Below the pieces are notes generated by a model. It did no database searches, was not told the origin of the DNA, and was given only the letters and a program-made list of their open reading frames with translations. Positions 40,767 to 64,000 of a stretch of 64,000 nt of DNA are shown piece after piece. Each line of letters opens with the position of its first letter. The first letter of the stretch is position 1. This DNA comes from Rhododendron vialii (lineage: Eukaryota > Streptophyta > Magnoliopsida > Ericales > Ericaceae), in NCBI RefSeq assembly GCF_030253575.1, contig NC_080564.1:26516561-26580560 (forward strand), given 5' to 3'. Position numbers and translations under genes: made by a program.

Positions 40767-43700
40767 ATGGAGCTCCAGAACACAGTGAAAGAAGCCCTAA
40801 ACGCGCTGTACCACCATCCAGACGACGCCGTTCGCATGCAGGCCGATCGATGGCTTCAGGAGTTCCAGCGAACCATCGATGCTTGGCAGGTGATCCTCTT
40901 TTTTCTCTCTCGGATTTATCCGTGTTGATTCGTATGCATCGATATACAACTAGATATTCAATTTATATACTTGCAAATTTGACTAGCGATGAGAACATTT
41001 GGTCTATCTTTTGTAAATAATCGGAGTGGAAGAAAGTCTTAAGCGACGTTTTATCGTGATTTAGGCTTAATGAGTTGAATTGAATTCTGTTTCTGGGGTT
41101 TATCAGCCACTTGTTCCTAGAAGTATTGCCCAAGATTAGGGTTCGCTTGCGCCCGTCTATCTTTTGTCAGCAGCGCGCATTGGTCGAACAAGCACTGTGC
41201 AATTGTTATTTTCTTCTGGTGGCTTAGAAACGTTGAAAAAAATAAAGAAAAACACTTTTTTCGCTGTTAGATTTTCCCTTATATGTTGTGTGGAAATCAC
41301 CATTTTGACACAGCATAATAAAAATGTTTATTTGTTTTTTAGATCTTTGTTTCTACCTCAATTAAACAGCTCATATTAATTTATTTATTTTCTGCCGTTT
41401 GGTTTGAAATGACCTTGTAGAGAGCTGGCATTTATTGGATTGCCTTGGCATCATATGGAGACCATTTGAATGATTTTGGATGGCAATTGTGCATTAATAA
41501 GTCAGTTAACCACAAGAACTGAAGTTTTAGCCTTTATGTTTTAAAGGCACAGCCTTTTAGGTATTCTAAATGACAAAAGGCTTTTGTCGGATTTGTGCTA
41601 AACGACTAATATTGTTTGAGGATGGTGGTTTAAATGTCTCGTACTCTCGTTAGGCTTTTGAATAGATCCTATTGGACACTAACCAGATATGGAGACTTGG
41701 CGGATTTTTTTGTTTTGTTTTGGAGTTATTCAGCATTTTTATATTTTTAAGTGTGAATTGCGAAGTGTAGTCTAGAGAAAATGGTAAGGACTAATTGGGT
41801 TGTTGTCTAATAATTGGGTTGTTGTCTTGTGTGTTAGCCCGAAAGAGCAACCTTATTTCATTAGATTTCCTTTAAAGTTCCATTGAGCTCCTCTTATATG
41901 TCAATTTTTTTTTGGCTCAGAACATTCTTCTCGACAAGTAATTGGAAAAGTAAAATTATAGGGACTGAAGTTGAAAAAAGCTCAAATAAGACGACCCTGA
42001 AATATTTTTTTCTTTGGCGAACTTTTTGAGGCTTGTGGTCATAATTTTACCGATTAGATTCTATTTGTCAATACAAAAAAACAAGGACAATAATGTGGAA
42101 TGATTTTGCCCAGACATGAGTCTCTCTCTAGATGACTCCGATATTCAATGGAACATGTGCTCCCTAATATGTCATTGGTTGGACATTATACTTCAATTTA
42201 GTATTGTCCATGATTCTGTTCTTTTCAAATTATTTTTGACTGTTTCTTTATTAATTCTAATTTCCCCCTTTTGCCATGCAACGAGGCTCACATACGTTAT
42301 TGGTTGTTTAGGTCTCTGATAATCTACTTCATGATGCTAGTAGCAATCAAGAAACCTTAATCTTTTGTTCTCAAACGCTTAGAAGCAAGGTAATTTTGCT
42401 TATCCTACTCTTCATTAATCTCTACCAGTTGCTATTGTTGTATATTGCGGTTGACAGTTAAATACGTGTTTCTATTAGTATATCTGAAATTAGTTTAGGC
42501 CTTGAATTAGGTTTTGGTACATCAAAACAGCTGTTTATTGGGTACCCCACTCTCCCGCACACACAAGCGGAGAACCTTTCTTTTCTTTCCACATAATGAT
42601 GCAATTTGTAAAGTTTGGAGACAGACTTAGTTTGTGCCTAGAGTGGGGTGAACTGGTCAGATCCTAAGAACTGTAAGAGATTGAAATACAGTTGCAACCA
42701 CATTAAACAAACAATTAATTCAGTTACTGCAAGTTAACCATTCAAATTACAATTACAAGACTAAGATTCTAACTCCAAGATTTATGTGGAAAACCTTTAA
42801 AGCTATCCTCAAGTAAAAAGCATGAATTTCAAGCCTTGGAGTCCTATGCAAGACTCAAGTTAGTTGCTTACAACCAATCTGAATGCCTGAGATATTTGAT
42901 GTGTTGAACAACGAACATGTCCATTCAATCTCCATACTCTGTTGGCTCCGGCTGCCTTGTCCTCTCTTGGTTTTGAATTTCAAGCCTTGGAGTCCTCCAA
43001 TCTCCACAGCCTAGAGCCCCAATTGCGATCACCAATCCGCAAGAGGCATGCATGCTTAATGCACCATGATTGGATCAAGTGCAGTAGGATCTGTTCTTCA
43101 AAATCAGAATTAGAGAAGATTTTCTGCAGCACTTCTTGGCAAATATCTGCTCTTTGCTGTGCTGTTATAGACAAATTTTAAGTAGTCTTTGCCTCTTTGG
43201 ATTCTTGAAAGCCTAGGGCACCAGAGTAATTATATTCTGTGGAGAAGAAAATGAGCTGCCTTTCTCTGGATCTACATTTTGTGACTTCTGCAGACTCTGT
43301 TTTGGATCGTCGGCCTTAACCCTAAAACCCTAAACCCTAAAGTATACAAAACTGGAGAACTTATATCTTTTGTGCTTTGAAAACCCGTGTCTTCGACTAA
43401 TTAGCTTACACAACCTAGCCCAATTTTGGATACGGGATTCACTGAAAACAACCATGTAATTTTTTTCCATCTGATTGACAGGTACAGCGTGATTTTGAAG
43501 AGCTGCCTTCTGAAGCTTTTCGCCCATTACGTGATTCACTAAATGTAAGTGAGTACGATTTGTTGGGGCTATGGGGCAAATGCTATCTCATATTTAATGG
43601 GAAATCAAAAGCTTATGCTTACTTTTATCCTTTGACACTAAATATGTTCTTCCATAATTTTTCTTTCTTGATAAATAGCAGTGTTTCTTAACAAGTTAAC

Positions 43701-46700
43701 ATGCATTAAGATAAATGAGGGCTTAAGGTGTTAATGAGGCATGGGCAGTTTGTCTTTTCAATTGAGACACTATAGTTGGGTCTCGTCTATGGAAATCATT
43801 TTATTATTTCATGGTTCTGCTGCTGCTGCTGCACCTCTTTCCGGAGAGAATGTAAATGGGATCTGGTCCAAGTGACACTATCCCCTCCCTGGTTCTTGTT
43901 TTAAGTTTCCACTGTTCTTGGTGACAAATGAGTTTTTGTTTATGTGCTAATGTCTTCAGTCTAGCATATTGAACCTTGTTTTCTTTGTTGCCTTGCGTGC
44001 ATTTGTTGATATATGACAGTAAAGCAGAATTGTTTCTTTTACTGATTGCCAGCTCTCTTTGTTGTTGTTTTGAATGCAGAGCTTATTGACAGCATTTCAT
44101 AAAGGCCCCCCTAAAGTTAGAACCCAGGTATCGTAGTTTTCTGGCTACAAGTTCACTCTTGTGCACACATGTATGGCATGGAATGCGCATTTCGAAGATA
44201 TTTTGCTTAAAATTTTCATTTTGTAGATTAGTCTTGCTGTGGCTGCATTGGCTGTTCATGTTCCTGCTAAAGATTGGGGTGATGGTGGAATTGTAAATTG
44301 GCTCAGAGATGAGATGAATTCTCATCCAGAATGCATACCAAGTTTCCTTGAGCTACTCAGAGTTTTGCCTGAGGTATATGCATGCTTTTTACAACAGATA
44401 CTTAATGCAGTTGATTTATGTCTTTATGTGACATCATGAGAGCAATGTCTTGGGGATTTGACTGCGGATTAAAAAAAATGTCCTTTCGGCACGCTATCAC
44501 TAACATCAAGTTAAAAACCAGGCATAGAAGAGATCGTGTAAAAGTTGTGCGGGACGCAATTTAGGATATGCTGAAGCATGTATGCACTTTCGACCAACCT
44601 TCAAATGAAATCTGCTAATAAACAGAGACAAATGCTGTTTTAACAGTCTAATGCTTGCACAAGTAATATAGAAGGGGAAAGAAGAAGAAAGAGAAAGCAC
44701 ACTAAAGGCAGCAACCATAGTCACAGTACAACTCTTAATTATTATTGATAAATCTCCCTAATATGATGCAAAACCCTCTTATCAATATGCTGACAACCCT
44801 GACAAAGAAACGGGAAACTTTAAGATGACCTATTTAAATATTTACCGAAATGCGTATTCAATTAGACTCCTAAGTACGAGTGAATTAGTGACTCCTGAGC
44901 TTACAACTATGCTGTAAACTCTTAAGGGTTGCACCGTCAATGCTTCTCTGCTGAAATGAACCAAGGCTCCAATGTGTTTGGAGCACTTCCAAGAATAATG
45001 TCTGAAGGAGGAGGAGCACACCCGATCATCAAAATGTTTCTTGAATTTGAAGGTGTGAATTGAATTTGATGGCTTATGAAAGGGTGTGTTTTGTTCAGTG
45101 GTCTATGAAAGTGCAAGTATTGGCACGTCCAGCATTTACAACATGAGAGTCCTTTGTCCATCATCATTTTGTGAGCTCACCAATAAAGAATGTCTTGGGG
45201 TGCTGGTCGTCAAGCTTGGTTATCCGTGCTACATGATAAGGATTGGGATAAAGCTTAACCTTCAAACTAAATTTTGTCATTGCTTCTTTAGACATGGTGT
45301 TAATTACTAAAGAGAGCACTTGTTTGCCGCACTTCACGCTTGAATGAAATCTCTTCTCTCTGTTGCTTAGCAACGAGCAAAGGATGAATGATGTCAATCA
45401 CATCATCGAAAAGGTTTCCATCGGATCTTGGATCAATTGGTATGAAAACTTGCACGTCAAGCTTTGACGCAATCTTTTGTTCTATGGTGTCTTCTTTTGA
45501 AACCTTGCAAGTCTGCTATGGTTTATTGTTTGTGGTCTTCATTGTGTATCCTATAGCTAATGCAGGGGATTGGAAAATGGAATTGTTTTATGAAAATTGT
45601 TAGGAATGATATATTTGAGCCAGTGTTTTAAATGGCGAAAGGCGCACTGAGGCGCAACAGTCCCTTGGGTCTTTAGCACAAGGCGCAAGGCGCGGCGCGC
45701 GCTTTATTGTCGCAAAGCGCAAAAAAAAAAAATTCCTTCGTAACGAGGCAAATTTTATTAGAACAAATTTTCAACACAAACACACTTGTAAAACTTTCAA
45801 ATGTCATAAAACATAACATGTCAATGGTTAAACGAAAGTACCAAACACGAAACATAACATATCATCCATGAAAAGCTAACATAATAATGTTTGGCCTTAG
45901 AGACATAACAAAAGGATTAAAGGCAATAAAATCTAGAGTCATGCATAGACATTAATCATCATTCTCAGAACCAAGAACTTCATCTTCAATTTCATCGTCA
46001 TTATCTGATGATTCTGATTTATATCCTTCCACATCTTCCTCCTCCTCATCATCCGTCTCCTATTCTCCCTCTTCGATCACCTCATCTATAAGAGATGTCT
46101 TTCCTCTTGAAGCCTTAGCCTTTAGAGTTGGTTTTGCCATTTTCGCGATAGGTGTTGAGTCTGTTGACTTTGAACTTGATGCTCTGGTTGTTTTCCTTGG
46201 TTCTTCGGCTCTAGAAGCTAAAGCAACATCATTCCAATTCAAATCATCACCCTCAAACACAGCTTCTTCCTCCATCTTCCGAGCCAACCATTCATTGCTC
46301 TCATCAATATCTTTCAAGGATATAGGATCAATGCGATCACGTTTGAGGTATCGACGTTTCAATGCTCTATTGTACTTAACAAATACCAAATCATTGAGAC
46401 GCTTTTGAGCTAGTCTATTCCTTTTTTTTGTGTGAATCTGCATTAACAATTAATTATACAAGGGATTTAAATTCATGATCATACATAACTAAAGGAAGTC
46501 AATGAATGAACTTGATTATCATATACTCACATGCTCAAAGACACTCCAATTACGCTCACATCCCGAGGAACTACAAGTAAGGCTAAGAACTTTGACGGCA
46601 AATTTTTGCAAGTCAGGAGTGTCATGACCAAATGAGGCCCACCAGTCAGTTGCACACCATAGAATATTGATATTGGAAAACATTCTTAAAGTGCAACTCT

Positions 46701-49700
46701 TAGGACTTAAATTAGTTACTAGATTAAGGTTAACATGGTGATACCTGGTGCCCTTGTATTTCTTTGCCTTATTGCCATTGGGTTACCGAAGAGTCCTTCA
46801 GCTCTCTCATAGTTCATCAAGTCGGCACAAATAAGGTCTTGTGTATCATTATTGGGAATCAACTTTGTGAAACATCTGTATAGGCCTCCAATGACTTCTG
46901 GAACTTTGCAAGCCTCTGGATTTTTGTAAAAAAATTCAGGATTTAAGTAAAAACCAGCTGCATGCAAAGGCCGATGCAATTGGGATTCCCACCTCTTGTC
47001 GATTATCTTATAGACCTCATCATACGTCTCCTTATTTTGATTGAAGGAATTTGCAATAGTTTCTTTAGCCCGATCCATAGCCTCATAAATGTATCCCATT
47101 GGAGGCTTGACTTCTCCATCAACCAATCTAAGTACCTTAACAAGTGGGGAAGCGAACTTGAGGGCAAGGAGCACATTCCTCCAAAATGAGGCCATCAACA
47201 TGACTTTTTCTACATATTTTCCTCCTTGCTCTTTTGCCCATTTGCTATTGGTCCACTTCTCTGAAGTAAACATCTTCCTTAAGTTTCTCTTTTGTTCATA
47301 AACCCTTTGCAAAGTCAAAAAAGCGATTGCAAACCGAGTTTTTGCCGGCTTAACGAGCTCCTTCCTCTGGGTGAATTGCCTCATCATATTTAACAAAGAA
47401 GATCGATTATAAATATAACCATGAATCATTATTGCCCTTTCCCAAGTTGTCTTCAAATTTGGTAACTTAAAAATGTCTTCTAACATCAAGTCCAAGCAAT
47501 GGGCAGCACATGGAGATCAAAACAAGTGAGGTCGTTTTGCCTCCAACAACTTCCCTGGTAATTGTTATAAATAAGTGGTGTTAGAAGTTAGAACTAGAAG
47601 CCTAGAATAATAAGTGATTTTTAATTGTTCATAACTTCAAGTAACACAACCAAATAGCAAATTGAAATTCTCACCTGCCGCCACATTTGCCGCAGCACTA
47701 TCCGTAACAATTTGAACCACGTTTGTTTCTCCAATATGCTCCACCCACCCATCAAGCAATTCATATATCATTTCTGCATCCTTTACAATTCCAGACGCAT
47801 CCATAGATTTCAGAAACATGGTCCCCCTCAGAGAATTCACCAAAAGATTCATTAATGTTCTATTTTTCCTATCAGTCCACCCATCGCTCATTAGCGTACA
47901 CCCATATTGTTCTTGGTCTTTTTTGTGCTCCTCCATCAACTTGTTAACATGTTCTACCTCTTTTTTTAGAAGAGGGACTCGCACTTGATGATAAGTTGGT
48001 GGGGGCAAACCCGGACCGTATTGCCCAATAGCCTCTATCATTGGCGCAAAACTATCATTGTTCACAACATTTAGAGGTATCCGACAATCATATATCCACC
48101 TTGCAATAGCCTGATGAGCCCGGTCTTTCAATATTTTCTTATATGGTTCATTCTCATCAATTTTTGGCTGTTTGCCCTTGGCTTTTCTATTTTCCACCAC
48201 CACCTCTGGTTCAGGAGTGTAGTAAGTGTCGAGAGGCTCTATGTTTCTTGGTTTCTTAGGCTTAGAATGAATAGATGCGGAGGTTGTGCTTCCGTGAGTA
48301 GAAGATTTCTTAGAACGGGGATTGGATTCAATAATATCATCATCCAGGTCCAAGTCATAATCATCATCATTCATTGCATCATCAATATCTGGTATAGACT
48401 TAATTTGACTCTTTGCTTCATCCCTTTTACGTATAAACTCCCTCATCTCCTCTCTAACCTCAGGTGGGCATCGGCGACATGCCGCCGTATTCCTTTTAGC
48501 TCCTCCAGCAAGGTGTTGCTTGATTCTTGACACACCCCCATTTTTCACTTCGTTACAAAATATACATTTCAACTTGGTATTATTGTGTGGCTCAACCTTT
48601 TCGCAATACTTCCAACCAGGGTCCTTTTTACTAGAATTTTCAGATGTCATCTACAATTAACAAGTACAAATAATACCATAAACACATATAGCTGCTGGAA
48701 AAAAAACAAAAACAAAAAATCTAAAATAGCAGAACAGCCCAGGAGGTAATTAATGAGAAAACAGAAGGACTCAAATGGGGAGAGACTGAGAGAGAGAGGG
48801 GTAATGAACGTGAACAATGTATTGATGGGCATAGTACTGTGTGTGCACACAAATGGACCAGTACTGCTCTTATTAAATTTTCTAATATGTTATACTCCGT
48901 CTTTCAATTTTCCGAAAGTAATTAAACAGAAAAAAATGTATGGTAAGAGAAATAAATGCGACTGAATTAATTTATTTCATGGTACAAGTAAAAGAAGTAT
49001 GGACGGAATGAAGGGGATGAAGACAGTTTACTAGAGAGAGAGAGAGAGGGAGAAAATTGGGAATGCGGCTCTTTTTTTTGCATGCCAAACACGTCTCTAT
49101 CCTTTTGTGAGTTTGGAACTCACTTGGTCCTCCTCCAAGGAAAAAAATTGCCCAGGAGGTAAAAAAAAATTAAAAAAGAAAAAAAAAGAAAAGAAACAGG
49201 CGTTTAAAGAGAAAGAAAAAAGAAGAAGAAAAAAGAAGAAAAAATTGCCCAGGAAGGAATAAGAAGAAAGAAGAAGAAAAAGAAGAAAGAAGAAGAAAGA
49301 AGAACAGCAAAGAAGAAGAACCAGTAACACTGTAACAGTACCGGAGGAGGAGGAGGAGGAGGAGGAGGTTACCTCGTCGCTGAAGAGTGAAACTGATGCC
49401 TGAAGTTGCTGTCTCGATCGATCGTTGATCGCCGTCACTGAAGCTGCTCGGCTGCTGCTGGGTATGGATCGTGTATGATCGTCAGCCGATTAGGGTTGAA
49501 ATTAGACTTAAAAGCAAATATTATTCAGTGCATCGCGTGTCTTTTCTGCTGAATCTGCACCATTGGATCAATTTTTGGATCACAGACAAAAAGCATGCGC
49601 CTTGCGCTATAGCGTGCGCCTTGGTGCCTTTTCTGCGCCTTCGTGTTTTCCGCTATAGCGCCATTTTTTGAAGCGCAGAACGTGCGCTGCGCTGCGCCTC

Positions 49701-52700
49701 GCGCTTTAGCGCACTTTTCAAATCACTGATTTGAGCATTTGTATGTGTGTGTTAGGGTTAATCTAAACACTTCTTCTTTTCTCTTCTCTCCAACATGGTA
49801 TTAGGGAGGTGATACTATCCCATCCTCCGCCAACCACCACCCTCCGCCGCCAATTGCCCCTTGGATGCCACACTTCGTTGACCACATGTTTGCCAGCAAC
49901 CCTTAGATCTATCATGATGTGTGTTCGCTATGAAATACTTTCATGAATCATGATGTGTCTGCTGAAAGCTATAAAGCTTGCCTTGTTGCTAATATACAGA
50001 TGTACAATGTTGGTTATGTAGAGACCTTCTCTCCTGTTGCCAAGATTGGTTCTGTTCGGCTTCTTATCTCCCCTTCTCCAATCTTGCTTGGCTCTTTTTC
50101 AGTTGGATGTCAAGAAGATCTCCACGAGGAAATCTTCATGGAGCAACTACCTAGGTTTGTTGCTCAAGGGGAGAGTAATTGGGTGTGTCGCCTTCGCAAA
50201 GCTCTGTATGGTTTTAAGCAGTCTCCTAGAGCTTGGTTCGGCAAGTTGAGTCATGCAGTTTTACTATTGGGCATGCGTCGTCGTCATATTGACTATTCTG
50301 TCTTCTATCTCATATCTCTGATCGAGGTAAAATATTGTTGATGGTTTATGTCGTTGATATTGTCATTATGGGTGGTGATCAGAAACGCATTGATGAGTTG
50401 AAAGACTCTCTACAACGTCAGTTTTATACCAAGAACTTGGGCAAGTTACCTTATTCTTCGGTATTGAGGTTGCTAAATCTAAGGATGGAATTGGTTTATC
50501 TCAGAAGAAGTATGTTTTGGATATTTTGGAGGATATTGGTTTGCTGGGATCGGGACCCATAGATACACCTATGGATCCCAATGCCAAACTTTTTGTTGAT
50601 GAGGGGGTGTTGGTCTCTAATCTTGACTAGTATCATTGCGTGGTTGGTAAGTTTAACTATCTCACCATTCCACGTTGTTATATCTAGAATCCTTGATTGC
50701 AGTTAGTATGGCGAGTCAATTTATGTCTGCTCTAAGTATTCCACATTTGAAAGCTATTCTTAAAATTGTGAAGTACCTCAAGGCCCTTCTAGAATGTGCA
50801 CTATTTTAATGAGCGGGCACTTCCTTGGTGAGGCTTTTACCGATTCAGGGTAGGCAAGAGGGCCATATGACAAGAGATCCAGGATGTTCTACCTTTCTTG
50901 GCTGAAATATGGTTTACACATGTGAGAAATATAGGTGTGCTCTTTTCTTGACGAGATAGTGGTCAAAGTGCAGCTGAGAGGACTAAGCATACTGAAGTCG
51001 ATTGTCATCTTGTTCGAGAAAAATTGGATGGCGGTGTCATAGCAACTCCCTTTGTGTCTACAGGCGCCCTGTTGGTTGACATGTGTGCTAAACTGTTGTT
51101 TAAGGCACGGTTGCTGTTATTGTGTAACAAGTAGGGAATTTGTGATATTTATTCTCTAGTTTACATGGTAGTGTTAGTAGTTATATATTTTAGTGTTAGC
51201 CACACTATACATCAATAACTTATGTGTGTCAGGGTTAATCCAAACCTAAGCACTTCTTTTCTTCTCTTGAACAAAAACCATTATTCGAATAAGTTGCCCA
51301 AGGCATAATTTTCATACTCCGTGAATTGTCAGTGTCATAAATAGTACTAGCTACTACACAAAGCGGTATTTATTGAGGGATGCCAATGTCTTCAATTGCT
51401 AGTTGTGCTTCTTGGAAATATGTTACTCGTTACTGGGCTGATGGTGGTGTTTGTGTCTCCCAGTATTAGTGAGATTGTTGGTAATATGTTAGTTACTGAG
51501 CTGATGGTGGTGTTTGTATCTTCAATTTTCAGTTGTGCTTCTTGGAAATATGTTAGTTACTGAGTTAATGTAGCTGTGGTTTCTTTCATGGTTTTCAACG
51601 GGGGATTTTTCTCTTGTTTTAATTCTTCTTGTAGAAAATGGTATCCTGTTATGCAATTTTATCTGGTAACTATTTTATTCCTGATGTGTTGACTCAAAAT
51701 TCATGAATTTCTGTGTATTGATTTCCTCGTTGAGTTTAATTCTTTTGATGGAAACATAGTGAGGTAAGATGACAGTGGTTTATGAATTTGGTACAAAGAT
51801 TATTTAAGCATGTGGGGAAAGTGATGGGGAATGGCTGGCCAGTTAAATCGTGGATGAGGTGTGGTGTGTAGAACGTGATACATGAGTTTAAATGCATGTG
51901 TTCTATTGCAGTGGATAAAATGGATGTGGTGGGAGGGAATAGTTAGCCATGTAACTTGATTATAAATATGTGCCTACTATACCTCATGGCAAGTTTCTCA
52001 GGACTATTTCATGAAATTTTTGAAAAAAGGTGTGGTGTGTACAATTTTTTTTTCATCATCCAAGGTGTGTTCAAGTTTATGTTCTATTGTAGTGGATGAA
52101 ATGGGGTATGGGAGGAGGGAATGGTTGGCCATGTACCTTGCTTAACATTGTCTGTATACTTACCTCATGGGAAGTTTCTCATGACTATTTCGTTTCGCTG
52201 CCAGGAAGCTTTTAACTACAAGATAGCAGCTCGTCCTGATAGACGCCGCCAATTTGAGAAAGAACTTGCCTCTCTTATGGAGGTTGCTCTTGATATCTTG
52301 AGAGCATGTTTGAATATTAGTGAACTTACGGAGCAGGTGGGAGCTCTTCTTTGTTGCTTGCTTAAGAGATTCTTCTGTTTAATATTAGAGTATACACTTG
52401 CAGATAAGATCTAGTTCCATCTTTTGAGTTTTGGTGAGATGCATATTGGTTCTAGAACTGAGAGTGAGTAGCTGTCTCCGACTTTTGGTTTCATTGAAAA
52501 ATAGTTACTTTAAAAATTTCTGTGGATTGTGGTTAGTTTTCGCGATCCTTCCGTTTCTTTGACTTCTTGCACTTGTTGATGACTGATCAATTTGAAACTA
52601 ATGATGTAAAGTGGAGGCTGGAGAAAGTAGAGCTCGGAGTCTGGTGACTTGACTAGGCTCTAAAGTGTTTGGCTGAAGGAATTGTCCAGTAGAATTTAAT

Positions 52701-55700
52701 CTTTGTCTAGCTGGCATCACTTCTCCTCCTACTAGTTGCACTAGTTTTCCATGCTTGTATACAGTCTACAAGTCTTTGTTTATTTACTAGAGTTTCTTGC
52801 GGTCCTTTCACCAAAAGAATGTATTTTAAGGAACTTGTGTAATCAGATTATGTTTTGCCTCTGAAGTACTACCCCTGGGTTTTGCGTAACAATTTTGTGA
52901 ATGTCTCATCATTTATTTCTGGCAGGTTCTCGAGGCATTTGCTTCCTGGCTTCGTCTAAGGCATAGGTGTGTATGTCTGTTCTTTTTTATTCCATATTCG
53001 TTTCTCTTAGAAAAGAAAGTATTTGGTAACGGTTGTGTATGCATTTCAGTTTTTGCTCCATGACTTTGCTTTGGTTGTCAAGGAATTCCTGAATAATAGT
53101 AACCTTATCACACATGTTATCTCATTTGATTCTATTTTTGGTTGGCTTTTCCTGTTGCTCATACAATGAAGGATGCCTCATGGCAAAAATCATTTGCTAT
53201 TTGAAGCATAGTTTATCTAAGGTACTGTATGGGTGAGATGTGAATGTCACAAGCTCTTCCAAAGAGTCCAGCAGTCGGTATTTGGTGATGCTTGAACATA
53301 AGTTTGTGATCTCTGACCATAGTATCAACTTTTTGCTACGATAGGGATCTGCTAGAGTGGGCATCTCTTGTTTGAACAAGTATTCTAGCGGAGAATTTTG
53401 GTTATATTTATTTGTTTTATCTGGATCCAGCTATTCGGGATGCAAAACTCATGGAATTGATAAGCCTAAGTAGACTGTACATTAAAGATCTCTCCTTCCC
53501 TTGATCAGTTCTTATCAGTCTTCTAAATGAGATGTTTTAGAAGCAGCCTCAAAGCATTTGCACAATTGGTCTGCTGTGATCCATTAGAGTATTTGTGATT
53601 TGTGAGCCTCACCTGATAGAACAATCACGATACCCCACCACCAACCCACTAACATCCTTTCACAACCAACATTGATCAATAGCCTTTCAACAAAACCATA
53701 TCAATCCTCTTTCAAACATTAGAAAATCACATCAATCTGGTTTTGAACAGAACCAGGACAAGCATCAAGACGACAAAATGAAGAAGAAACTAGCTTACAG
53801 AATTTGCCAAACTAGGACCAAACTAGAACAACCCCCTTTTGATACCTGATAGGCTGGTACGGTTATACGTACTTGATTCTACTCTTGGACAATCTGGCAC
53901 ACGGTGGTCGCAATGTACAAAACTAGTTGACGAAGTTGATGAGGCTGGCGTGAGATGGTTGCAAGTTGGTCCCAGTCAATGCTTTCTGTCCTTTTCTCCA
54001 CTCTTTCTTCTATTGGATAAGTAAGAGATGATATTGCCAATGATGGTTCTTACCACTCTTCCCAACCTTCTACCTTGTTCATAGACCTGTATTGGTGGCC
54101 TTCCTTCGTTGCACGGCTACTTGTTTGCAGTATCAAGCACATTGTGGTTTTTAATGTCAGTTTTTGTAGGAAAATATTGGATCACATTTCCAACAGTTGC
54201 AGACTTGCTTCATTGCAATCCCAAAGAGAGCAATGTTTTGGTAATAGTCATTTTTAGGTGAATTGAACCCAAGATCTAGCCAGAAGAGTTTTCTTCTTCT
54301 TCTTCTTCTTTTTTATTATCTTCATATGCAATAAGAGAAGTTGGTTTCTCAATTTAGCATCTGTTCCTTATTCTTTGAGCCAGTAAAACAAAACAGAAAA
54401 GTATAGGAGGGAGAGATAATTTAGAAAAAAGGAAACATGTATGTACACTGATACTGGACTCTTGTCAACAAAAAAGCATGTACACTTAAAGTAAAAGCAC
54501 TAATGGATTTCCTGAATTTTGGAACCATGCAACAAAGTGAATAGATTGTATACTATATGGAAGGATATAGATTTATGGGTGCGTTTATTTGGATAGTATC
54601 TATTATATTTAATTTATGTCATTTTCAATGTGAATAATTACATGTTACGAAAATTCATAGCAGTGCTTTCGAGGCACAAGGGACTTTTCTTCCAAGGTTG
54701 TGAATTTTGCTAAATATGTGTATAAGGTTTCCCATTTCCTTAATGAACTAGAACTTTATACAACTCTAAATCTGATAGTATCAATAGGTTTGTTCTACGC
54801 AAGTTAGCATATAGTGAACATAGTTCTTTTTCTCTCTCCATGTACACTCTTGTGGCTTTCATGGAAACTGATAGCTTCCTGCTTTTGATAATTTTGGCAT
54901 GTGGTTGTTCCGGGGATTCTCTAATAATGGTATTCTCTTGAATAACTTCCCATCCTATTCTACAAGATAGAACTCATGAATATCTCTTCGTTTCAGGATT
55001 CCTTCTTCTACGCTTGCTTCTCATCCATTGGTGCTGACAGCTCTTTCTAGCTTGAGTTCTGATGTCCTACTCGAGGCATCTGTCAATGGTATTATAGTTT
55101 GCGTAATTAAACTTTTTTATTTGGTTACACTTCCACTATGATTTGGACTCTTTGCGTTTAAAATGATACATAGTCTTTATCAGGTCTGAGAGCCTCACTT
55201 TTGTGATTTGTTTGGTAATTACTAATTGCTTCTAAGGCATAAACAGTATCTCAATGTTTTGAATGCAATTAGTTAACATCTGGAATGCGGTACTTTTCTG
55301 ACAACAACTGCTATCACCTTTAGTTTAGAGATGGTATTAATGGCCTTCCATGTGCTAACATATATCTGTGTCATGGGAAATGGGTGGTATGAGTAAAGTC
55401 GATTTATTACCTTAAGGATAAATGAGAATTACTTTGTCATTATGGTAAGAGACACGTGAGAAGAATAAAAAATATATACATTATGGTTGAGAGAGCGAGC
55501 AATTGAGAGAAATTTTGGTGCAAACATTATGTATTGATAATCTAAAAACCTATAGTTTCCCAATTGTAAAAGAATTCCTGCCAAGAGGATTGATCCTGAT
55601 GCAGGTTCATCTTAGACAGAATCTTCCCTTCCATATCAGCCCTTCTGACCTTGATGCGTAATCAGTTCCTTTGTCCTTGAAGATTCTTTCTGTGCACGTT

Positions 55701-58700
55701 ATTCATGGGCAGTTTATATCTATTGTTGCACGAGCTTTTAGGTTACTCATGTGATAGGTTAGGTTGTTGCTTTCTATCGAGAACATGCATTAGATCAAAA
55801 TTTTAATGTTACTATGCTACTAATTGTGACATAGTATTGTGATATGAAACTTAATACAAGTTACTGGGTTTGAGTTTCCTTCCATTTGAAGTTATACAAC
55901 TTTGTGCCACATACTTGTGTATGTGCTTGATATATGAAACTCATGCAGTTGATGTGAGGGACCCACATATTGCGTCAGTCAGCTTTGTGACTCAAATTCG
56001 GAAGGTTATCATAAAAGGGAATTAGAAAATGTGCTCCCAAGGCCTGGAAGATATTAGGATTCTATTGGTGATGTCCATTGACCGAAAGCAACTGTAGGAA
56101 GGATTTTGATTGCATTAGTATAATTTTTTGTACTCTTGGTAAAGATAAACAAAAGTTGTAGCAAAACATGGACAGATGACCCTGTCACAGTAGTGATATC
56201 TAGAAGGATTGTTATCAAAATGCATCATATATTTGGCGGAGATTAGGTGCTGCAACTGGATATTAGTCAACAAACAACCTTTATATTTTGATGACTAACA
56301 AATAACTATGTTGATATGCATTGGTGACCCGCTGAAAAGGAAGAAAAGCTATGTTACGTGGACTTGGGTACATGTGTCAGGTGCGGGTCTGCGTCGAGTG
56401 TTGGATTCATCTAACTTCTATTTCAAGGACATGGGGGCACGCCATATTATTTATACTCCTTAGTGCGGGTATTTCTTTTATTTTCTAAAAGGTATTTACA
56501 AGGTGCCTTGGGACATTTCATGCATGATATTGAGTTCTATGCATAGTTCTTGCCATTTGAATTACAAAATATAATTTCAAGGTGAATGACCTACTAAACA
56601 TATCGGACATGATCCAAGCCCTGTTTTGAGTGTCGAGTTTTGGAGATTATACGAAGGAAAAAGGAAAGAGAAACATGAGATTGTGGTCATAAAATCTTGC
56701 ATGCCAATATCTAAAAAGGAGAAGAAAAAAATATCTTGCTAGTGGTTGAAAGAATAAACTGTTCTTCAGAACGTGATGAAGACGAGACTAATTCAGAAGC
56801 TAGATTACAAAAACCGTGCCACGTAAAGGGTATGTGAGATATGCGGTCATAAAATCTTATTCTTCTCTTTAACACCTTAAGCTCTTAACTAGTGTAGGAA
56901 ATCTGTGGGTTTTTCTTTTTCTTTCATTTATTTGCTTAGTTATTGTTACTAGAAGTTGGGCCACGCACAATGCGTGTGCAACTCAGATTATGATCACCAA
57001 TAAAACAAAAAGCAATTGGGAGTTTTCAAATTATATGTGGGTAGATATTTGTAGCTTATTCGAAAACAATTTCTTAGTAACATTACTGGTAAATATAAAA
57101 TTATAACCCCATTACATACACCAAAAAGAAAATCACGTTGTGCGTAATGGAAGAGGGGAAAATGGAGAACACAAACATGGGTCTCTATTCCGCTCCATGT
57201 CTTTTTCAATACTGCTGGCAACCATGATTTTACTCCCTGTTGGAGTTTCCAAGGAATTCAAAGTCGGCACTGGCTAGAGAGAGCCCAGAGCAATTGAGAC
57301 TGCGTTGTATACCCAGTGGGCTAACTGCTTCAGAGAGAGGATGTTAATTTACTGCTGCAGTAAGATCGTGGGGGTTAACATGGTGGGCAGTTATGTGTGG
57401 GCAATTTACTGTATTGCCCAAATGATTATGTGCCAATGAAAGATAAATTATAATGGACATTAGTGAATTGGTTGAGGGCAATATTGGGTTAAAGAAAAGT
57501 CCATACAGCTTCAGCTTTGGGGTGAGCCCAAGTTGTGCTCCCCCTTTATAGAATAGAATAGATAGATGCAGAGTGAGTTTTTACATGTTATGATGGTGCA
57601 GTTTGTTATGGAGTTTGTCCCATGACACACACTTAAACTTACACTGGTTTTTTTCTAAATGCCAAGATTTTTGCGTGCCAATTATTCTGTTTCTACTTAA
57701 CAAACTTTTATTTCTTTCTGATTCATATTTTATCCTTTTGTTGGTTTTGCAGTAATTTCTGAATTAATACATTACACAGCAGCAAGAAACTCTGGTGGAG
57801 TTGTGGCACATATGCCCTTAATTCAAGTGATTGTGCCTCAAGTTATGAGCCTTAAGTCACAGCTTAGAGATTCTTCAAAGGTATTGCTTCGTCAAATTTT
57901 CCTTTCTCTGGTTTTCTGATGGCCAACAAATACAATAAGTTGATGGCCAACAAATACAATAAGTAGACTTTCTGCTTATAATGGTGAAGACATCCCCCTC
58001 CCATGCTGCCCCAAACTATATGGGGTGGTACAGGCTAAAGTTACTCATATTGTTGTTCTTGGATGGTGTGTTAGACTGCAAATGGTGAAACATGGTACCA
58101 TTTCAAGTAACCTGAAGCTAGTCATCACATTCTATTGGCGAATGTGAAGATTTTCCAAAGCCTATCATCTTCTTCTCTGGTTCTTTTCTATTTGATGTTT
58201 GTAGAGGAAATAAACATAGTTTTTTGGTATTGATTCTGTGATAAGGGCGATATAGCTAGAACTGGAATTGTCATGGTAAGCTGAAGCTAGTCATCACATG
58301 ATTGACTTCTATTGGTGAACTATTTTCCCATGGCCTACCATCTTTTATTATGGTATTTGATAGCTGGAGAGGAATAAACATGGCTTTCGGATATTGATTC
58401 TGTACTGCTAGAACTGGTCCTCCCTATCTGACTACCTTTGGCATTTTAATTCTCTTGTTTTTCTTTCAATTTTTTTGTTTTGTTTTTGGTTAAAGTGGCC
58501 AGAGCGCACTTTTGTTATGAGTGGACTCAGTGGCGACTCCAAGATTTTGGACACTTGGGTCATTCATTAGCATATACTCTTACCAATTATTTAAAAAAAA
58601 AAATCAATAGTAATGACAATTAATAATGTAGTTTGACAAAAAACATATCTAAAGCTCAACAAGCATTTCAACTTAGAAATAAAAGATATCGAAAGGTATG

Positions 58701-61700
58701 CACTAATAATCTTCTTTTCAGTTTCACCACACAAAAAAAACACTCTAAAACTTCTACAATTGCATTTGATGGGGTTTCGCCTAGTGGTGCCCCATCACCT
58801 CTCAACGCCGCACACTTTTGTGGGTCCATACACTTAGAGGTGTGGTGCCCCAAGACCACCAAATAAGTTTTCTGCAAAGAGTGAGGTGGTTTCAAGTGGG
58901 GAAATAATGTAATGGGGTGATGTTTTAAGTTTTAATTTCTACGGAGGAGAAGGTGAATTTCAAGTGGAGAAATAATCTAGTGTGGTGTCATCATCAAATT
59001 ATAATGGTGTCATCTACTAATTTGGAAAAGAAAATTCAGTATATTAAGCGTAGCTTTTTTTTCTTCCGTGGGGTCGCCCGACCCCACTACTACCACTGTG
59101 GGGTCGCCATTGAGTGGACTTCCCTTCACTGACTCCCGTCTACTCATATAAAACCTTCTCAAACCTTTTTTCAGCTGTTCTTGTTTTAACTCCACATGTA
59201 GCTGATGGTTTCAACCAAATTACGGTTGGCTTATAAGTAACCTTGTTATTTCAAGTTGAATCTTATTTTTTGGCTTCAGAAAAACAATGTCGTATATTGG
59301 CGTTTCTGTCTGTCTTTGTCGTATATTGGTGTTTCTGTCTCTGTCTTTTTCTTTCTTTTTTTGCCTGTCCTAATGTGTTCTCCATGACGGTAGGTTTCGA
59401 TAGTTGGTTGATCTCTGCTTGAATTTTTAAACACTGTTCTTTAGAAGTACAGCTCAAAAGCATTAGAAGGTCACGACGACAATAATCTACCTGTATGTTC
59501 AACACTGATGTGTTGCGACCTTTTTGCGCTCCAGAAAAATCTTGTTTGTCTTGTTTCACAGTTGCCTGATTGGTTCATGTAATACTACATTTTTTATTTT
59601 TCTGCATTTAGAAGACCCCATATGAATATAGACATCTATCTATATAGATGGCGTGCCTTTTGAGATTCTGGGATCCAATGTAAAAACTCGTCAGTGGATT
59701 TCCATAACATTGGGTTTGTGTCTTCTTGTTATAGTTTTGTGATTTGATTCTACAAATGTCTTCATGATTCTAAGTTAATTCATTGATATTGATATGTACG
59801 GTAAGTTGGTAACTACCGGATCATAAGTTTTTCTATTTGTCCAGATTTCTTAGGTTTTTTGCATTGTAACTATAATTTTCTTGTGTTCGACTTTTGATCA
59901 TAAATTACCTTTGAAATACCCAGTATGTTGAGTTATGCTTCTGAGTTATTTGGCTTTGCATGACTATAATTTTCTTGTGTTCGACCTTTGATCATAATTA
60001 CCTTTGAAATACCCAGTATGTTGAGTTATGCTTCTGAGTTATTTGGCTTTGCATGAATTCCAAGGTTATGATTTGTGTATGAGAGTACAAATAGCATAAA
60101 TCTATCCTTTCATAATCTAATTCCAGGAGAGGAACAGATTGTGGAAGTGTTTTATGGTTGCTCTTTTCTGAAGGAGTCTAGGATTTTTAATGGGGTTGGT
60201 CCATAATTAAGATATATTCTTTTGTTTCTTGGGCCTTGCTTGCTCTTCCTAAAAAAGTGAAGTTTTCTGTTACCTTTTTGAAGAATTCTTTGTTGCAAGA
60301 GCTGTTTAATTGGAACATGGTGAACCTCATTCAACATATAAATTACCTATGATAGAAAGTACGCTGCTGTTTCAGTGTCTGCTGTTTTTGACTTACAAAT
60401 ATGTAAAGATGTCCACCCTTTAGTGTTAGCCAAGGGCACCACTGTTTCTGATGTGATTTATATTCGGGTTTAAAAGCTTGTCAAATTAAGTATTGGAAGA
60501 CAAGGTTCTTGTGTTGGTGTTGGAAGAAAATCTCGTTCTGCTATGTTTGCTGACATTATTTTACTTTTTGTTGGCTTTTGTTAGACTTAATTCCATTTAA
60601 TTGTTTGAGGTAGAAATGAAACATTAAGGTTACTGCACGGCAATTTATAGTCATCTATACTGCTTTACTTGTGAGGTTGTGACTTTTCCTGTTTGATTTA
60701 CTTTTGTCTTATTCATGAAGCTGGTTTTTGACTCGAAACATAATGGCAGAAATCGAAATATTTCCTCTTCACGTTATTTTCAGGATGAGGAGGATGTCAA
60801 GGCCATTGCTCGTTTGTTTGCTGACATGGGTGATTCATATCTTGAATTAATTGCAAATGGTATCGTCTCCTTTTATTTTGGTTCTTTCCATCATTTGTCG
60901 CTAGTCTTTGTATTCCAGATTACTAGGAGGTGTTTTTAATGGCGATTTTCTCTTCAGTATGGCTTTTCCTGTAGCTCTGAATCTTTATCATTAGTTTACT
61001 CTCTTTGCTGAAAACATATTTGTTGCAGGTTCTGATGAGTCGATGGTGATCGTGCATGCGTTGTTGGAAGTTGCTTCACACCCTGAATATGATATTGCTT
61101 CTATGACATTCAACTTCTGGCACAATCTTCAGATATACTTGATTGAGAGGTAAATCTATCTGGAATTGTCAATTCAGAGAGAAAGAAGGAAAAGTGTATA
61201 GGGTGTTAACTAACCCTAACACAGGTGAGCTTTATTTATATTATGTGGCGACTAGTTACATAACATAAGCAACCAATGTGGGACTAAGTCCAACTCTATT
61301 CTAACACTCCCCCTCAAGCTGGAGAATAAATATCACAATATCCCAGCTTGTTACGTAACAACTCTAAACGTGGTTTAACTAGAGGTTTGGTGAAGATATC
61401 TACCAACTGAGCTCCTGTAGACACGAAAGGGGTAGCCAACAGGTCACTATCTATCTTCTCCCGAACAGTATGACAATCTACCTCGATGTGTTTGGTTCTC
61501 TCATGAAATACCGGATTCGAAGCGATATGTATTGCTGCCTGATTATCACAATACATAGGAATAGGTAACTGTACACCAAGCCCCAACTCCTCGAGCAAAG
61601 CTCTCAACCATACAATCTCGCATGTAGTATGAGCCATGGCACGATACTCTGCTTCAGCACTGGAACGAGCAACCACAGTTTGTTTCTTGCTCTTCCAGGT

Positions 61701-64000
61701 AACTAAATTTCCACCAACAAAAGTACAGTACCCGGTTGTGGACCGTCTATCAGATGGTGATCCTGCCCAATCAGCATCGGTAAAGGCTTCAACACACAAA
61801 TGACCATTTGAACGATAAAACAAGCCACGTCCAGGATGAGCCTTGAGATACTTTACAATACGAAGACAAGCTTCCCAATGTGGAAAACGAGGAGCTGACA
61901 TGAATTGACTTACCATACTGACAGCAAATGAGATATCAGGCCGTGTATTGGTGAGATAATTCAGCTTGCCTACCAAGCGACGATAACGATCTGGATGAGG
62001 AAATATCTCCCCCTGATCAACACACAATTTGACGTTTGGATCCATAGGAGTCTCCGCAGGCTTTGCTCCCAATAAACCAGTCTCCTCTAGAATATCTAGC
62101 GTATACTTTCTTTGAGATAGACTGATCCCTTCCTTGGATCTTGCTACCTCAATACCCAAGAAATATCGTAACTTACCCAAATCTTTGGTGTGAAACTGAC
62201 GCTGTAAGAACTGTTTCAGCTCATCAATACCTTTCTGATCATCCCCAGTAATAATGATATCATCCACATACACAATCAACACTACTCTTCCCCGATCTGA
62301 TTGAATAGAGAAGATAGAATGATCAGAATGAGAGCGACGCCTATCAAACTGCAACACAGCATCGCTAAACCTACCAAACCAAGCTCGAGGGGACTGCTTA
62401 AGACCATAGAGGGCTTTGCGAATGCGACACACCTGAGAACGCTCCCCCTGAGCAACAAACCCTGGAGGTTGCTCCATATAAACCTCCTCGAGCAGGTCAC
62501 CGTGTAGAAATGCATTCTTGACATCCAACTAAAACAAGGGCCAACCAAGATTGGCAGCCAGAGAAATAAGAATGCGAACAGAGTTAATCTTGGCAACCGG
62601 AGAGAGAGTCTCTGCATAATCAACGCCATACGTCTGGGTATAGCCTTTGGCCACAAGACGGGCTTTGTACCGTTCTACTATGCCATCCGGATTATACTTG
62701 ACTGTAAATACCCACCGACATCCAACAGTAGACTTTCCTGGTGGAAGAGAAACCAACTCCCAAGTGCCATTGTCATGAAGAGCAGACATCTCAGTCTCCA
62801 TAGCTGTCCGCCACTCAGAAACAGATAAGGCCTCCTGAACAGTGTTAGGAACAAAAATGGACGAAACAGAAGTAGTAAAAGCACGAAGGGACGGAGACAG
62901 ATGATTATAGGAAACAAACCGAGCAATAGGATGAGATGTGCAAGACCGAATACCTTTGCGAAGAGCTATAGGAAGACCAGGTGATGGCGGAGGTGGAGGT
63001 GGGGGTGGGGGTGGAGGTGAAGGTGCAACCGGATCTTGGGACGGAGGAGGCGTGGAGGCTGGTACTTGTGGGGCTGTTAATACTTGTTGCCGACGAACAT
63101 ACACCTGCAAGGGAGGACCAGATGGTACACAAATAGGAAACACAGACTCAGACTCAGACTCAGGAAGGTCAACTGGAGTACTGTGACCCGAGTAAAAGGG
63201 CAATGACTCATTAAATGTGACATCAGCACAAACAAAATGACGACGAAGAGATGATGAGTAACACTTATACCCTTTTTGAGTGCACGAGTACCCCAGAAAA
63301 ATACAACGAATTGACCGTGGATCAAGTTTGTCCTGGTCAGGATCCAGAGCATGAACATAACAAGTGCACCCGAACACTCATAAGGGTAATGAGTGGAGAG
63401 GGCGACCAGGAAATAAAACTGTATGGGGTATTTGACCACCTAGAACGCTAGATGGCATACGATTGATCAAGTAACATGCTGTAAGAACAGCATAACTCCA
63501 GTAAGACTTAGGAACTTGCATTTGAAATAATAGAGCACGCATAACCTCTGATAAATGCCTAATTTTGCGTTCAGCAACTCCATTTTGTTGTGGAGTTCGA
63601 GCGCAAGAAGATTGGTGAATTATACCATGGTCATCAAAAAACTTAGAAAGAGAATTATGAAAATATTCACCTGCATTGTCAGAACGAAATATACGAATGC
63701 AAGTATCAAACTGAGTTTTGATTTTCATATAAAATGACTTAAAGATAGAAGACAACTCTGACCGCTCTTTCATGAGATAAAGATACGTAACACGAGAATA
63801 ATCATCGACAAAAATAACATAATACTGAAAGCCAAAAACATTAAGAACACGCATTGGACCCCAAATATCAGAATGAACTAAGTGAAAAGGACCGGGTTAC
63901 GCGACTCTCAACCCTAGGATAAAAAGACACTCTATGATGTTTACTAAACTCACAGACTTCACAGGGCAAAGCATCAACACGGCTACATGAAGGTTCCAGC
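40767..64000 (+). CDS. MOS14: Importin-beta MOS14/transportin-SR, first 11 exons (partial at right edge)
   Basis: This is the nuclear import receptor for SR splicing factors, in the transportin-3 group. Exons are 40767-40889, 42312-42389, 43482-43544, 44080-44127, 44227-44373, 52205-52336, 52926-52966, 54997-55088, 57753-57880, 60784-60859 and 61029-61149. All are GT-AG and phase-consistent, giving 349 codons plus 2 nt, roughly a third of a family protein of about 960 residues. Recognised blocks include [20 protein letters not shown] at the start, [12 protein letters not shown], the [15 protein letters not shown] helix, [32 protein letters not shown] and [12 protein letters not shown]. The fold should be HEAT repeats. 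Intron 5 is 7.8 kb through nested transposon insertion, and intron 11 is entered by a second copia element. The coding exons read here have no stop or frameshift. The end lies outside the window. Confidence 0.92.
42540..43315. other. Repeat-like sequence in importin intron 2
   Basis: The phrase GAATTTCAAGCCTTGGAGTC occurs twice (near 42824 and 42975), and the text has transposon-like composition, but no family could be assigned. A 79-codon open frame here shows no domain. Confidence 0.3.
43316..43340 (+). repeat. Short interstitial telomere-type repeat
   Basis: The run holds three consecutive CCCTAAA-type units, with one extra A in the first. It is too short to be a telomere remnant of note and could arise by repair. 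It lies in importin intron 2. Confidence 0.6.
44930..45590 (-). pseudogene. Possible decayed Ty3-type retroelement fragment in importin intron 5
   Basis: A minus-strand frame near 45164-45397 includes [11 protein letters not shown] and [20 protein letters not shown]. This faintly resembles the aspartic-protease region of plant Ty3-type polyproteins (Cys-x-x-Ile-Asp ... LGLK-x-PHP-x-PY). The canonical active-site Asp-Ser/Thr-Gly is not visible, and stops flank the segment. The identification is weak; it may be unrelated intronic DNA. Confidence 0.25.
45598..45620 (+). repeat. Copia-1 5' LTR, left part (interrupted by hAT)
   Basis: The LTR starts TGTTAGGAATGATATATTTG, as expected for a copia LTR, and aligns with the 3' LTR at 51172. 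It is cut at 45620 by the hAT element, whose 8-bp duplication ATTTGAGC (45613-45620) belongs to the LTR. Confidence 0.7.
45952..48650 (-). pseudogene. hAT transposase (BED finger, DUF659, dimerisation domain), inactivated
   Basis: Exons on the minus strand are 48650-47675, 47554-46745, about 46649-46531 and 46437-46060, with an acidic tail encoded to 45952. An N-terminal BED zinc finger ([19 protein letters not shown]) is followed by the DUF659 block ([29 protein letters not shown]). The hAT C-terminal dimerisation domain ([32 protein letters not shown]) closes the protein. Three lesions are visible. A TGA at 47517-47519 falls where the family has Trp, before SPCAAHCLD. The expected exon 3 acceptor has AA instead of AG at 46650-46651, while phase and homology still fit. 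A TAG at 46060-46062 is followed by 35 in-frame, Asp/Glu-rich codons and a TAA. The otherwise open frame suggests recent inactivation. Splice sites are inferred by hand. Confidence 0.88.
48893..49012. mobile_element. Possible Stowaway-like MITE inside the hAT element
   Basis: The left end TACTCCGTCTTTC and the right end, read as reverse complement, CATTCCGTCCATAC resemble decayed Stowaway termini about 120 bp apart, with AT-rich content between. The similarity is modest, and the TA duplication is not decisive. Confidence 0.35.
49140..49372 (+). repeat. Purine-rich low-complexity tract (AAGAAG, GGAGGA)
   Basis: A long run of AAAAAGAAGAAG-type units ends in GGAGGAGGAGG. It lies in the 5' region of the hAT element, upstream of the transposase, and the antisense open frame through it is a low-complexity artefact. 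Confidence 0.8.
49737..49795 (+). repeat. Copia-1 5' LTR, right part
   Basis: After the second ATTTGAGC copy the LTR continues with GTGTGTTAGGGTTAATCTAA and ends CTCTCCAACA. It aligns with TGTGTCAGGGTTAATCCAAA...CTTGAACA at the 3' LTR. Without the hAT insertion and its extra duplication the LTR would be about 82 bp. Confidence 0.7.
49796..49808 (+). other. Copia-1 primer-binding site (tRNA-Met type)
   Basis: TGGTATTAGGGAG follows the LTR end directly and differs only slightly from the TGGTATCAGAGC used by most plant copia elements to anneal initiator tRNA-Met. Confidence 0.7.
49943..51150 (+). pseudogene. Copia-1 reverse transcriptase/RNase H remnant
   Basis: Frames broken by stops and shifts still show the copia RT blocks [27 protein letters not shown] and a catalytic motif read as YVVD where YVDD is required. 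Decayed RNase H text ends with a degenerate VDCH-type and LVDM-type sequence near 51000-51090. Gag, protease and integrase are absent between the primer-binding site and RT, so the element is a deleted, dead copy. It is related to the copia element at the right edge. Confidence 0.85.
51172..51273 (+). repeat. Copia-1 3' LTR (102 bp)
   Basis: The LTR starts TGTTAGTAG and ends CTCTTGAACA. AAAAC follows it, while AAAAT precedes the 5' LTR, a near-match 5-bp target duplication. The expected polypurine tract just before it is decayed. Confidence 0.65.
51395..51570 (+). repeat. Diverged direct repeats in importin intron 5
   Basis: AGTTGTGCTTCTTGGAAATA with TGTTA-TTACTG occurs at about 51401 and 51531. 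GAGCTGATGGTGGTGTTTGT-like text occurs at about 51437 and 51498. The arrangement is a decayed tandem duplication. Confidence 0.6.
51858..52191 (+). repeat. Diverged tandem duplication of the 3' end of importin intron 5
   Basis: Segments 51858-52013 and 52028-52191 share GGTGTGGTGTGTA, GTTCTATTG-AGTGGAT, TGGGAGGAGGGAAT-GTT and CTCATGG-AAGTTTCTCA in the same order. The second copy runs straight into the real acceptor at 52204. Confidence 0.7.
57917..57964 (+). repeat. Perfect 24-bp tandem duplication in importin intron 9
   Basis: TGATGGCCAACAAATACAAT plus AAGT occurs twice head to tail, shortly after the exon 9 donor. Confidence 0.92.
58106..58412 (+). repeat. Diverged tandem duplication in importin intron 9, about 170-bp period
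   Basis: CTGAAGCTAGTCATCACAT begins each copy (near 58110 and 58281). It is followed by TTCTATTGG-GAA, CC-ATGGCCTA/AAGCCTA-CATCTT, GAGGA-ATAAACAT and TATTGATTCTGT in the same order. Confidence 0.75.
59870..60056 (+). repeat. Nearly perfect 94-bp tandem duplication in importin intron 9
   Basis: Copy 1 is 59870-59963 and copy 2 is 59964-60056. They differ by one substitution (GACTTTTG/GACCTTTG) and one missing A, so the event is recent. Confidence 0.93.
61167..61306 (-). repeat. Copia-2 3' LTR (about 140 bp)
   Basis: On the minus strand the LTR starts TGTTAGAATAGAGTTGG and contains an AATATAAATAAAGC TATA-type core. It ends CTCTGAATTGACA with GGAAT immediately outside on plus. An alternative terminus at 61161 is possible. 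The other LTR and target duplication are not in the window, so the limit is provisional. Confidence 0.75.
61307..61318 (-). other. Copia-2 polypurine tract
   Basis: TTGAGGGGGAG on the minus strand directly precedes the LTR start TGTTAG, as needed for plus-strand priming. The pol stop codon at 61314-61316 overlaps it. Confidence 0.8.
61314..64000 (-). pseudogene. Copia-2 pol: integrase, reverse transcriptase, RNase H; disrupted
   Basis: Minus-strand order is as follows. The GAG-pre-integrase Cys/His text with VHSDIWGPM lies at about 63850-63990. The integrase core ([33 protein letters not shown]) follows from 63854. A proline-rich linker near 62970-63040 precedes RT blocks ([22 protein letters not shown], the YVDD catalytic motif). 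RNase H ([18 protein letters not shown]) and the [17 protein letters not shown] region end the protein. Lesions seen are an in-frame TGA at 63378-63380, an in-frame TAG at 62529-62531 inside RT, and an apparent one-base frameshift near 63890-63900. Catalytic residues are otherwise preserved, so decay is mild compared with copia-1. Gag is outside the window. Confidence 0.9.

What the first reader, a model, noticed from the sequence alone, without database searches (positions are those of the whole stretch)
45598..51273. hAT transposon nested in the 5' LTR of a copia element inside importin intron 5
Two insertions can be ordered from sequence alone. A short-LTR copia element (LTRs at 45598-45620 plus 49737-49795, and at 51172-51273) inserted first. 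A 4108-bp hAT then split its 5' LTR and left a perfect 8-bp duplication, ATTTGAGC. Together they make intron 5 about 7.8 kb within a gene needed for SR-protein import, yet splice sites and flanking coding exons look intact.
Basis: partly seen in the sequence, partly recalled or inferred. Interest (0 to 1): 0.75.

Follow-up and report, generated by a model that had tools for sequence, protein, structure and literature searches.

The report
Jumping gene nested inside older one
A fairly recent DNA transposon sits inside the end of an older, decayed retrotransposon within one intron of a plant nuclear-import gene; the reading is correct, but this kind of nesting is ordinary in plants.

Summary
A 4108-bp hAT element (45621-49728) is flanked by a perfect 8-bp duplication, ATTTGAGC. 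At least 21 other places in the same genome share its 5' end (lower bound), and 12 other copies have their own, different, perfect 8-bp duplications. Its two flanks join into an 82-bp copia 5' LTR that matches the 3' LTR at 51172-51273 (102 bp) and the LTRs of seven related copies. The order copia first, hAT second follows from the nesting; two clocks agree: LTR divergence 0.19-0.25 against a hAT terminal branch of 0.010. Both elements look dead: the copia lacks about 2.7 kb, and the hAT transposase has an in-frame stop and probably a lost splice acceptor. Intron 5 is 44374-52204 (7831 bp) of a Transportin-3/MOS14-like gene, the only match found in the genome, whose 11 exons in the window keep GT-AG sites and frame. 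Assembly statistics point to Rhododendron vialii (inference). Nested transposons and intronic transposons are well known in plants; no effect on the gene is shown. A new instance of a known kind; low interest.

The parts
44374..52204 (+). intron 5 of the Transportin-3/MOS14-like gene (7831 bp; about 2.15 kb without the two elements)
   Evidence: GT-AG, phase 0, frame kept between exons 5 (44227-44373) and 6 (52205-52336)
45593..45597 (+). left 5-bp flank of the copia, AAAAT (imperfect target duplication; right flank AAAAC at 51274-51278)
   Evidence: read from sequence; 4 of 5 positions agree
45598..45620 (+). left piece of the copia 5' LTR
   Evidence: 18 of 23 positions match the start of the 3' LTR; no other + strand place in the window does as well
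45613..45620 (+). ATTTGAGC, left copy of the hAT target duplication
   Evidence: identical to 49729-49736
45621..49728 (-). hAT element, 4108 bp, transposase on the minus strand
   Evidence: 21 other places share the 5' end, four other copies near full length; 12 other copies with perfect 8-bp duplications of their own
47640..48650 (-). hAT transposase, first open stretch with zf-BED and DUF659
   Evidence: Pfam: DUF659 E 3.6e-38; zf-BED E 5.2e-4, 20.4 bits against a cut-off of 20.6
47517..47519 (-). in-frame stop in the transposase, just before the SPCAAHCLDL block
   Evidence: of 24 distinct copies shown (window included), 22 have no stop in this codon and one other (L027) has a different stop codon there
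46522..46782 (-). hAT C-terminal dimerisation region (partial)
   Evidence: Pfam Dimer_Tnp_hAT E 2.6e-7, over the cut-off
49729..49736 (+). ATTTGAGC, right copy of the hAT target duplication
49737..49795 (+). right piece of the copia 5' LTR, ending in CA
   Evidence: matches related LTRs
49796..49815 (+). primer-binding-site-like stretch beginning TGGTATTAGGGAGG
   Evidence: directly after the 5' LTR; the young copia in intron 11 has TGGTATCAGAGCGG at the same place (reverse complement of the stretch printed)
49943..50562 (+). copia reverse transcriptase remnant in two frames
   Evidence: Pfam RVT_2 E 9.4e-17 and 2.0e-4 (the second is under the curated cut-off)
51172..51273 (+). copia 3' LTR (102 bp), preceded by a decayed polypurine tract
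   Evidence: 79-81 of 98-100 aligned positions (gaps left out) identical to the LTRs of 7 of 7 relatives, each score above all of its 200 shuffles
40767..61149 (+). exons 1-11 of the host gene, with the introns between them
   Evidence: 349 aa, PDB Transportin-3 E 1.7e-38; all 9 matches found in the genome lie in this locus

Best explanation
A short-LTR copia retrotransposon inserted in the sense direction into intron 5 of a Transportin-3/MOS14-like gene long ago, probably seven to nineteen million years ago at the rates used, and then decayed and lost most of its interior. Much later, about one to two million years ago at most, a member of a recently active hAT family inserted into its 5' LTR by ordinary cut-and-paste integration, making the 8-bp duplication. 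The hAT copy carries point mutations that break its transposase. Both are passengers removed with the intron. The anatomy and order are shown; the dates depend on recalled mutation rates; that the intron is spliced normally is inferred from intact splice sites and frame.
For: Perfect 8-bp duplication and hAT ends. Family copies with boundaries at the same base and different perfect 8-bp duplications at 12 other loci, with 4 more that have one mismatch in the duplication, of 30 loci examined. Transposase domains. Joined flanks align to the copia 3' LTR and to the LTRs of 7 of 7 relatives, each above all of its 200 shuffles. LTR-LTR K80 0.19-0.25 on 79-80 sites against a hAT terminal branch of 0.0103 and nearest-copy distance of 0.0157. 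No other match found for the rest of the intron. Exons in frame with GT-AG.
Against: The copia target duplication is 4 of 5, not perfect. The left 23-nt LTR piece does not by itself beat shuffles against related LTRs. The LTRs differ in length (82 and 102 bp) and align with 24-26 gap columns, so the divergence date is rough. In 8 of 30 loci no duplication was found, in 2 of these (L029, L038) although the alignment reaches the 3' end. No empty site in a relative or another haplotype was available, and no RNA data.
Confidence: 0.94

Rival explanations
1. The insertions have a functional effect: methylated intronic elements cause some premature ending or mis-splicing of the import-receptor gene, so that full-length transcript depends on an IBM2/EDM2-type pathway.
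For: In Arabidopsis the heterochromatic state of intronic elements is reported to be critical for proper transcription of the associated genes (abstract of PMC4417168). The intron is 7.8 kb and the copia lies in sense.
Against: Nothing in the sequence shows it; splice sites and frame are intact; no RNA or methylation data here.
Confidence: 0.08
2. The supposed 5' LTR halves are chance matches and the hAT simply inserted into plain intron next to a copia fragment.
For: The left piece is only 23 nt and fails shuffles against related LTRs on its own.
Against: It begins TGTTAG, matches its own 3' LTR at 18 of 23 positions with no equal elsewhere on the + strand of the window, and the joined LTR scores above all 500 shuffles.
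Confidence: 0.03
3. The nesting is an assembly artefact.
For: None found.
Against: Perfect target duplication, 16 private differences of this hAT copy in 3043 columns, flanks with no other match found. If the assembly is the one of PMC10338486, it was built from HiFi reads (passages seen).
Confidence: 0.01

Closest known systems
Plant hAT superfamily DNA transposons (zf-BED, DUF659, Dimer_Tnp_hAT type)
   Same: 8-bp target duplications, short terminal inverted repeats beginning CAGTG, transposase with these Pfam domains, shorter internally deleted relatives
   Different: Nothing found that sets the family apart; this copy carries a stop and probably a lost splice acceptor
Ty1/copia LTR retrotransposons with short LTRs (Ale/Retrofit-like by LTR size; the lineage name is recalled, not tested)
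   Same: LTR pair TG...CA, methionine-tRNA-like primer site (identity of the tRNA recalled), RVT_2 domain, polypurine tract position
   Different: Truncated interior (1376 bp), LTRs of 82 and 102 bp against 145-147 bp in 7 relatives
Nested transposons in plant genomes
   Same: Younger element inside an older one, order readable from the sequence
   Different: PMC6911290 (abstract) reports that LTRs are not commonly targeted by nested LTR retrotransposons; here the inserted element is a hAT, to which that survey does not speak
MOS14 / Transportin-SR of Arabidopsis (PMC3128105, abstract)
   Same: Best match by sequence in the PDB is Transportin-3, well ahead of Importin-13
   Different: No cargo or expression data for this plant's gene; no direct comparison with the MOS14 sequence was made

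Membership tests
hAT superfamily | 8-bp target site duplication | tested here: met
   Of 30 loci: perfect at 13 (window and 12 others), one mismatch in the duplication at 4, not found at 8, 5' end not held at 5
hAT superfamily | short terminal inverted repeats | tested here: met
   CAGTGTTTTAAA and CAGTGATTTGAAA, then GC-rich subterminal stretches
hAT superfamily | transposase with hAT dimerisation region | tested here: met
   Dimer_Tnp_hAT E 2.6e-7, over cut-off; DUF659 E 3.6e-38
Ty1/copia | two LTRs bounded by TG...CA | tested here: met
Ty1/copia | RVT_2 reverse transcriptase | tested here: met
   E 9.4e-17
Ty1/copia | 5-bp target duplication | tested here: inconclusive
   AAAAT and AAAAC, 4 of 5
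Ty1/copia | integrase upstream of reverse transcriptase | tested here: inconclusive
   That part seems deleted: about 168 bp where the copia of intron 11 has about 2.87 kb (derived). No integrase search was run on the relatives
Transportin-3/MOS14 | closer to Transportin-3 than to Importin-13 by sequence | tested here: met
   136.3 bits against 70.6 bits, residues 7-347 and 6-345 of the 349-residue part
Transportin-3/MOS14 | imports SR proteins | not testable with these tools
   Reported for Arabidopsis MOS14 (abstract of PMC3128105)

The most novel reading that the evidence does not exclude
The element-laden introns of this SR-protein import gene (hAT in copia in intron 5, a young antisense copia in intron 11) throttle its full-length transcript through intronic heterochromatin, so that the splicing machinery's own supply line depends on silencing of transposons.
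Probability: 0.05. Interest if true: 0.6.

Novelty: new member of a known kind. Interest (0 to 1): 0.15.

Why it matters
It is a clean worked example of reading insertion order from sequence, with two clocks that agree, in a gene found only once in its genome. If the elements changed the output of an SR-protein import receptor it would link transposon silencing to splicing, but no such effect is shown.

Tried and rejected
Looked for further copies of the rest of intron 5: 44380-45597 and 51274-52204 gave no match but themselves (the search skips simple repeats and very common words, so this does not prove that they are unique). Looked for a second copy of the gene that could serve as an empty site: all 9 protein matches lie in this locus, and so does the single match to the Transportin-3/Importin-13 second TPR domain. 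Checked whether the other hAT copies held carry pieces of this copia LTR in their flanks: outside the window's own loci only weak hits, E 0.012 or worse. Pfam TPR_TNPO3_IPO13_3rd gave nothing in the genome or in its 14 controls, so it says nothing. A paper search for hAT, LTR retrotransposon, inserted into, nested insertion, intron and Rhododendron, 5 of 6 terms required, found none; it does not show that none is in print. Two broader paper searches were seen as listings only. I left out a protein homology search for the species as not decisive.

Full report
Setting. The window lies in a genome of 532,647,506 bases in 13 contigs, at C8:26516561-26580560. PMC10338486 (passages seen) gives haplotype A of Rhododendron vialii as 532,733,691 bases in 13 scaffolds, longest 49,061,468, shortest 34,773,050; here C1 has 49,052,500 and C13 34,767,500 bases. 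The figures are close, not equal, so the species is an inference.

The hAT. The element runs from 45621 to 49728, 4108 bp, with CAGTG at the left end and CACTG at the right, and ATTTGAGC on both sides. A search with 45598-46200 gave 42 rows; 22 of them, the window included, begin within the first 26 bases of the query and run to its end, at 86-100% identity. Of the 21 others, 17 begin at base 23-26 of the query, that is at the predicted end of the element (base 24); the other four begin at 16-21 (counts are lower bounds, 40 of 122 candidates scored). Of those four, the local alignments of L002 and L004 begin at element base 1 and that of L034 at base 2, and the fourth is listed from base 1. 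Four further copies match over nearly the whole length at 92-96%. Of 30 loci examined (L017-L046; L017 is the window copy), 13 have a perfect 8-bp duplication, the 12 others all different from this one and from each other; 4 have one with a mismatch (one of these, L027, also has a mismatch in the terminal motif); 8 gave none, in 6 of which the alignment stops before the 3' end; in 5 the 5' end is not held. Some of the 30 loci are pieces of one element (L045 with L036, L046 with L023, L042 with L040, L043 with L039, L044 with L035), so the number of elements is smaller. The minus strand encodes DUF659, a zf-BED match just under its cut-off, and part of the hAT dimerisation region.

The hAT copy is broken. 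At 47517-47519 the transposase frame has a stop. Among 26 rows shown (24 distinct copies, since L042 and L043 repeat L040 and L039), 22 have no stop in that codon and one other copy, L027, has a different stop codon. The presumed acceptor of the second intron reads AA here and in two other copies (L030, L034) of 22 distinct copies shown; the intron itself is inferred from the reading frames.

The copia. The flanks of the hAT join into an 82-bp LTR (one copy of the duplication kept) that aligns with 51172-51273 at 66 of 79 aligned positions with 26 gap columns; the score of 82 exceeds all 500 dinucleotide shuffles (mean 17.8, maximum 40). The seven related copies for which loci were returned have 3' LTRs of 145-147 bp, by ends that I set, and the polypurine tract CTTGAGGGGGAG; the window has a decayed version in the same place. 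The window's LTRs match theirs at 66-68 of 75-80 aligned positions (joined 5' LTR) and 79-81 of 98-100 (3' LTR), gaps left out; each of the 14 scores is above all of its 200 shuffles (single-base shuffles). The left 23 nt alone does not beat shuffles against those relatives (7 of 7), but it matches its own 3' LTR at 18 of 23 positions, unmatched elsewhere on the + strand of the window. The interior is 1376 bp and holds RVT_2 pieces in two frames. Compared with the copia in intron 11, about 168 bp stand where that element has about 2.87 kb, so about 2.7 kb are missing. The best-scoring related copies are 74% identical over the reverse transcriptase part (40 of 347 candidates scored). The target duplication is 4 of 5 (AAAAT, AAAAC).

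Order and age. The hAT lies between two halves of an LTR and carries a duplication of LTR sequence, so it came second. LTR-LTR distance (K80) is 0.19, 0.22 or 0.25 with three gap penalties on 79-80 sites; at recalled rates of 6.5e-9 and 1.3e-8 per site and year this gives about 7 to 19 million years. The hAT's terminal branch is 0.0103 in a tree of 20 copies and its nearest copy lies at 0.0157 over 3041 sites; at the same rates the branch gives about 0.8 to 1.6 million years, an upper bound for this insertion. Two other copies, L022 and L023, are separated by about 0.0015 in the tree, so the family moved more recently still.

The host gene. Eleven exons at 40767-61149, whose borders I set by eye, read in one frame through GT-AG introns; the 349 residues match Transportin-3 (E 1.7e-38) ahead of Importin-13 (E 1.7e-18) in the PDB and Pfam Xpo1, IBN_N and the Transportin-3/Importin-13 second TPR domain. 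All nine matches found in the genome lie in this locus. I read some stretches of L053, beyond the window, as further coding sequence of this gene by eye and from memory of MOS14, untested. Arabidopsis MOS14 imports SR proteins (PMC3128105, abstract); the same role here is inference. Intron 5 is 7831 bp; without the copia, the hAT and one 5-bp duplication it would be about 2150 bp.

Verdict. The observation and its interpretation are right. Nested insertion in plants is well documented (PMC6911290, abstract), and intronic elements inside transcribed genes are as well (PMC4417168, abstract). No effect on the gene is shown. I score it low.

Noticed in passing
window from about 61177 to 64000, continuing in L053 to base 1843: A second, young copia lies antisense in intron 11 of the same gene; its two LTRs share 130 aligned positions with one mismatch. 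The LTR end next to exon 11 differs from the end of the other LTR, and by eye no clear target duplication was seen.
   Followed up: partly
C8:16021452-16022512, C8:15902256-15903315, C13:24847452-24848511, C3:11105230-11106290, C1:48443269-48444328, C1:29036160-29037200, C10:19062475-19063475: At least seven places of about 1.00-1.06 kb match the first about 349 bases, a short stretch near base 3008-3099 and bases from about 3977 to 4087-4092 of the hAT: a set of short, probably non-autonomous relatives.
   Followed up: no
L022 (C7:33541680-33544832) and L023 (C4:4088524-4091670): Two hAT copies on different contigs are nearly identical (branches 0.0004 and 0.0011) with different perfect 8-bp duplications, a sign of very recent movement.
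   Followed up: no
window 51404-51577 and 51899-52191: Short degenerate direct repeats in the last kilobase of intron 5 (for example 62 nt at 73% and 31 nt at 94%); no other match to the stretch was found in the genome.
   Followed up: no
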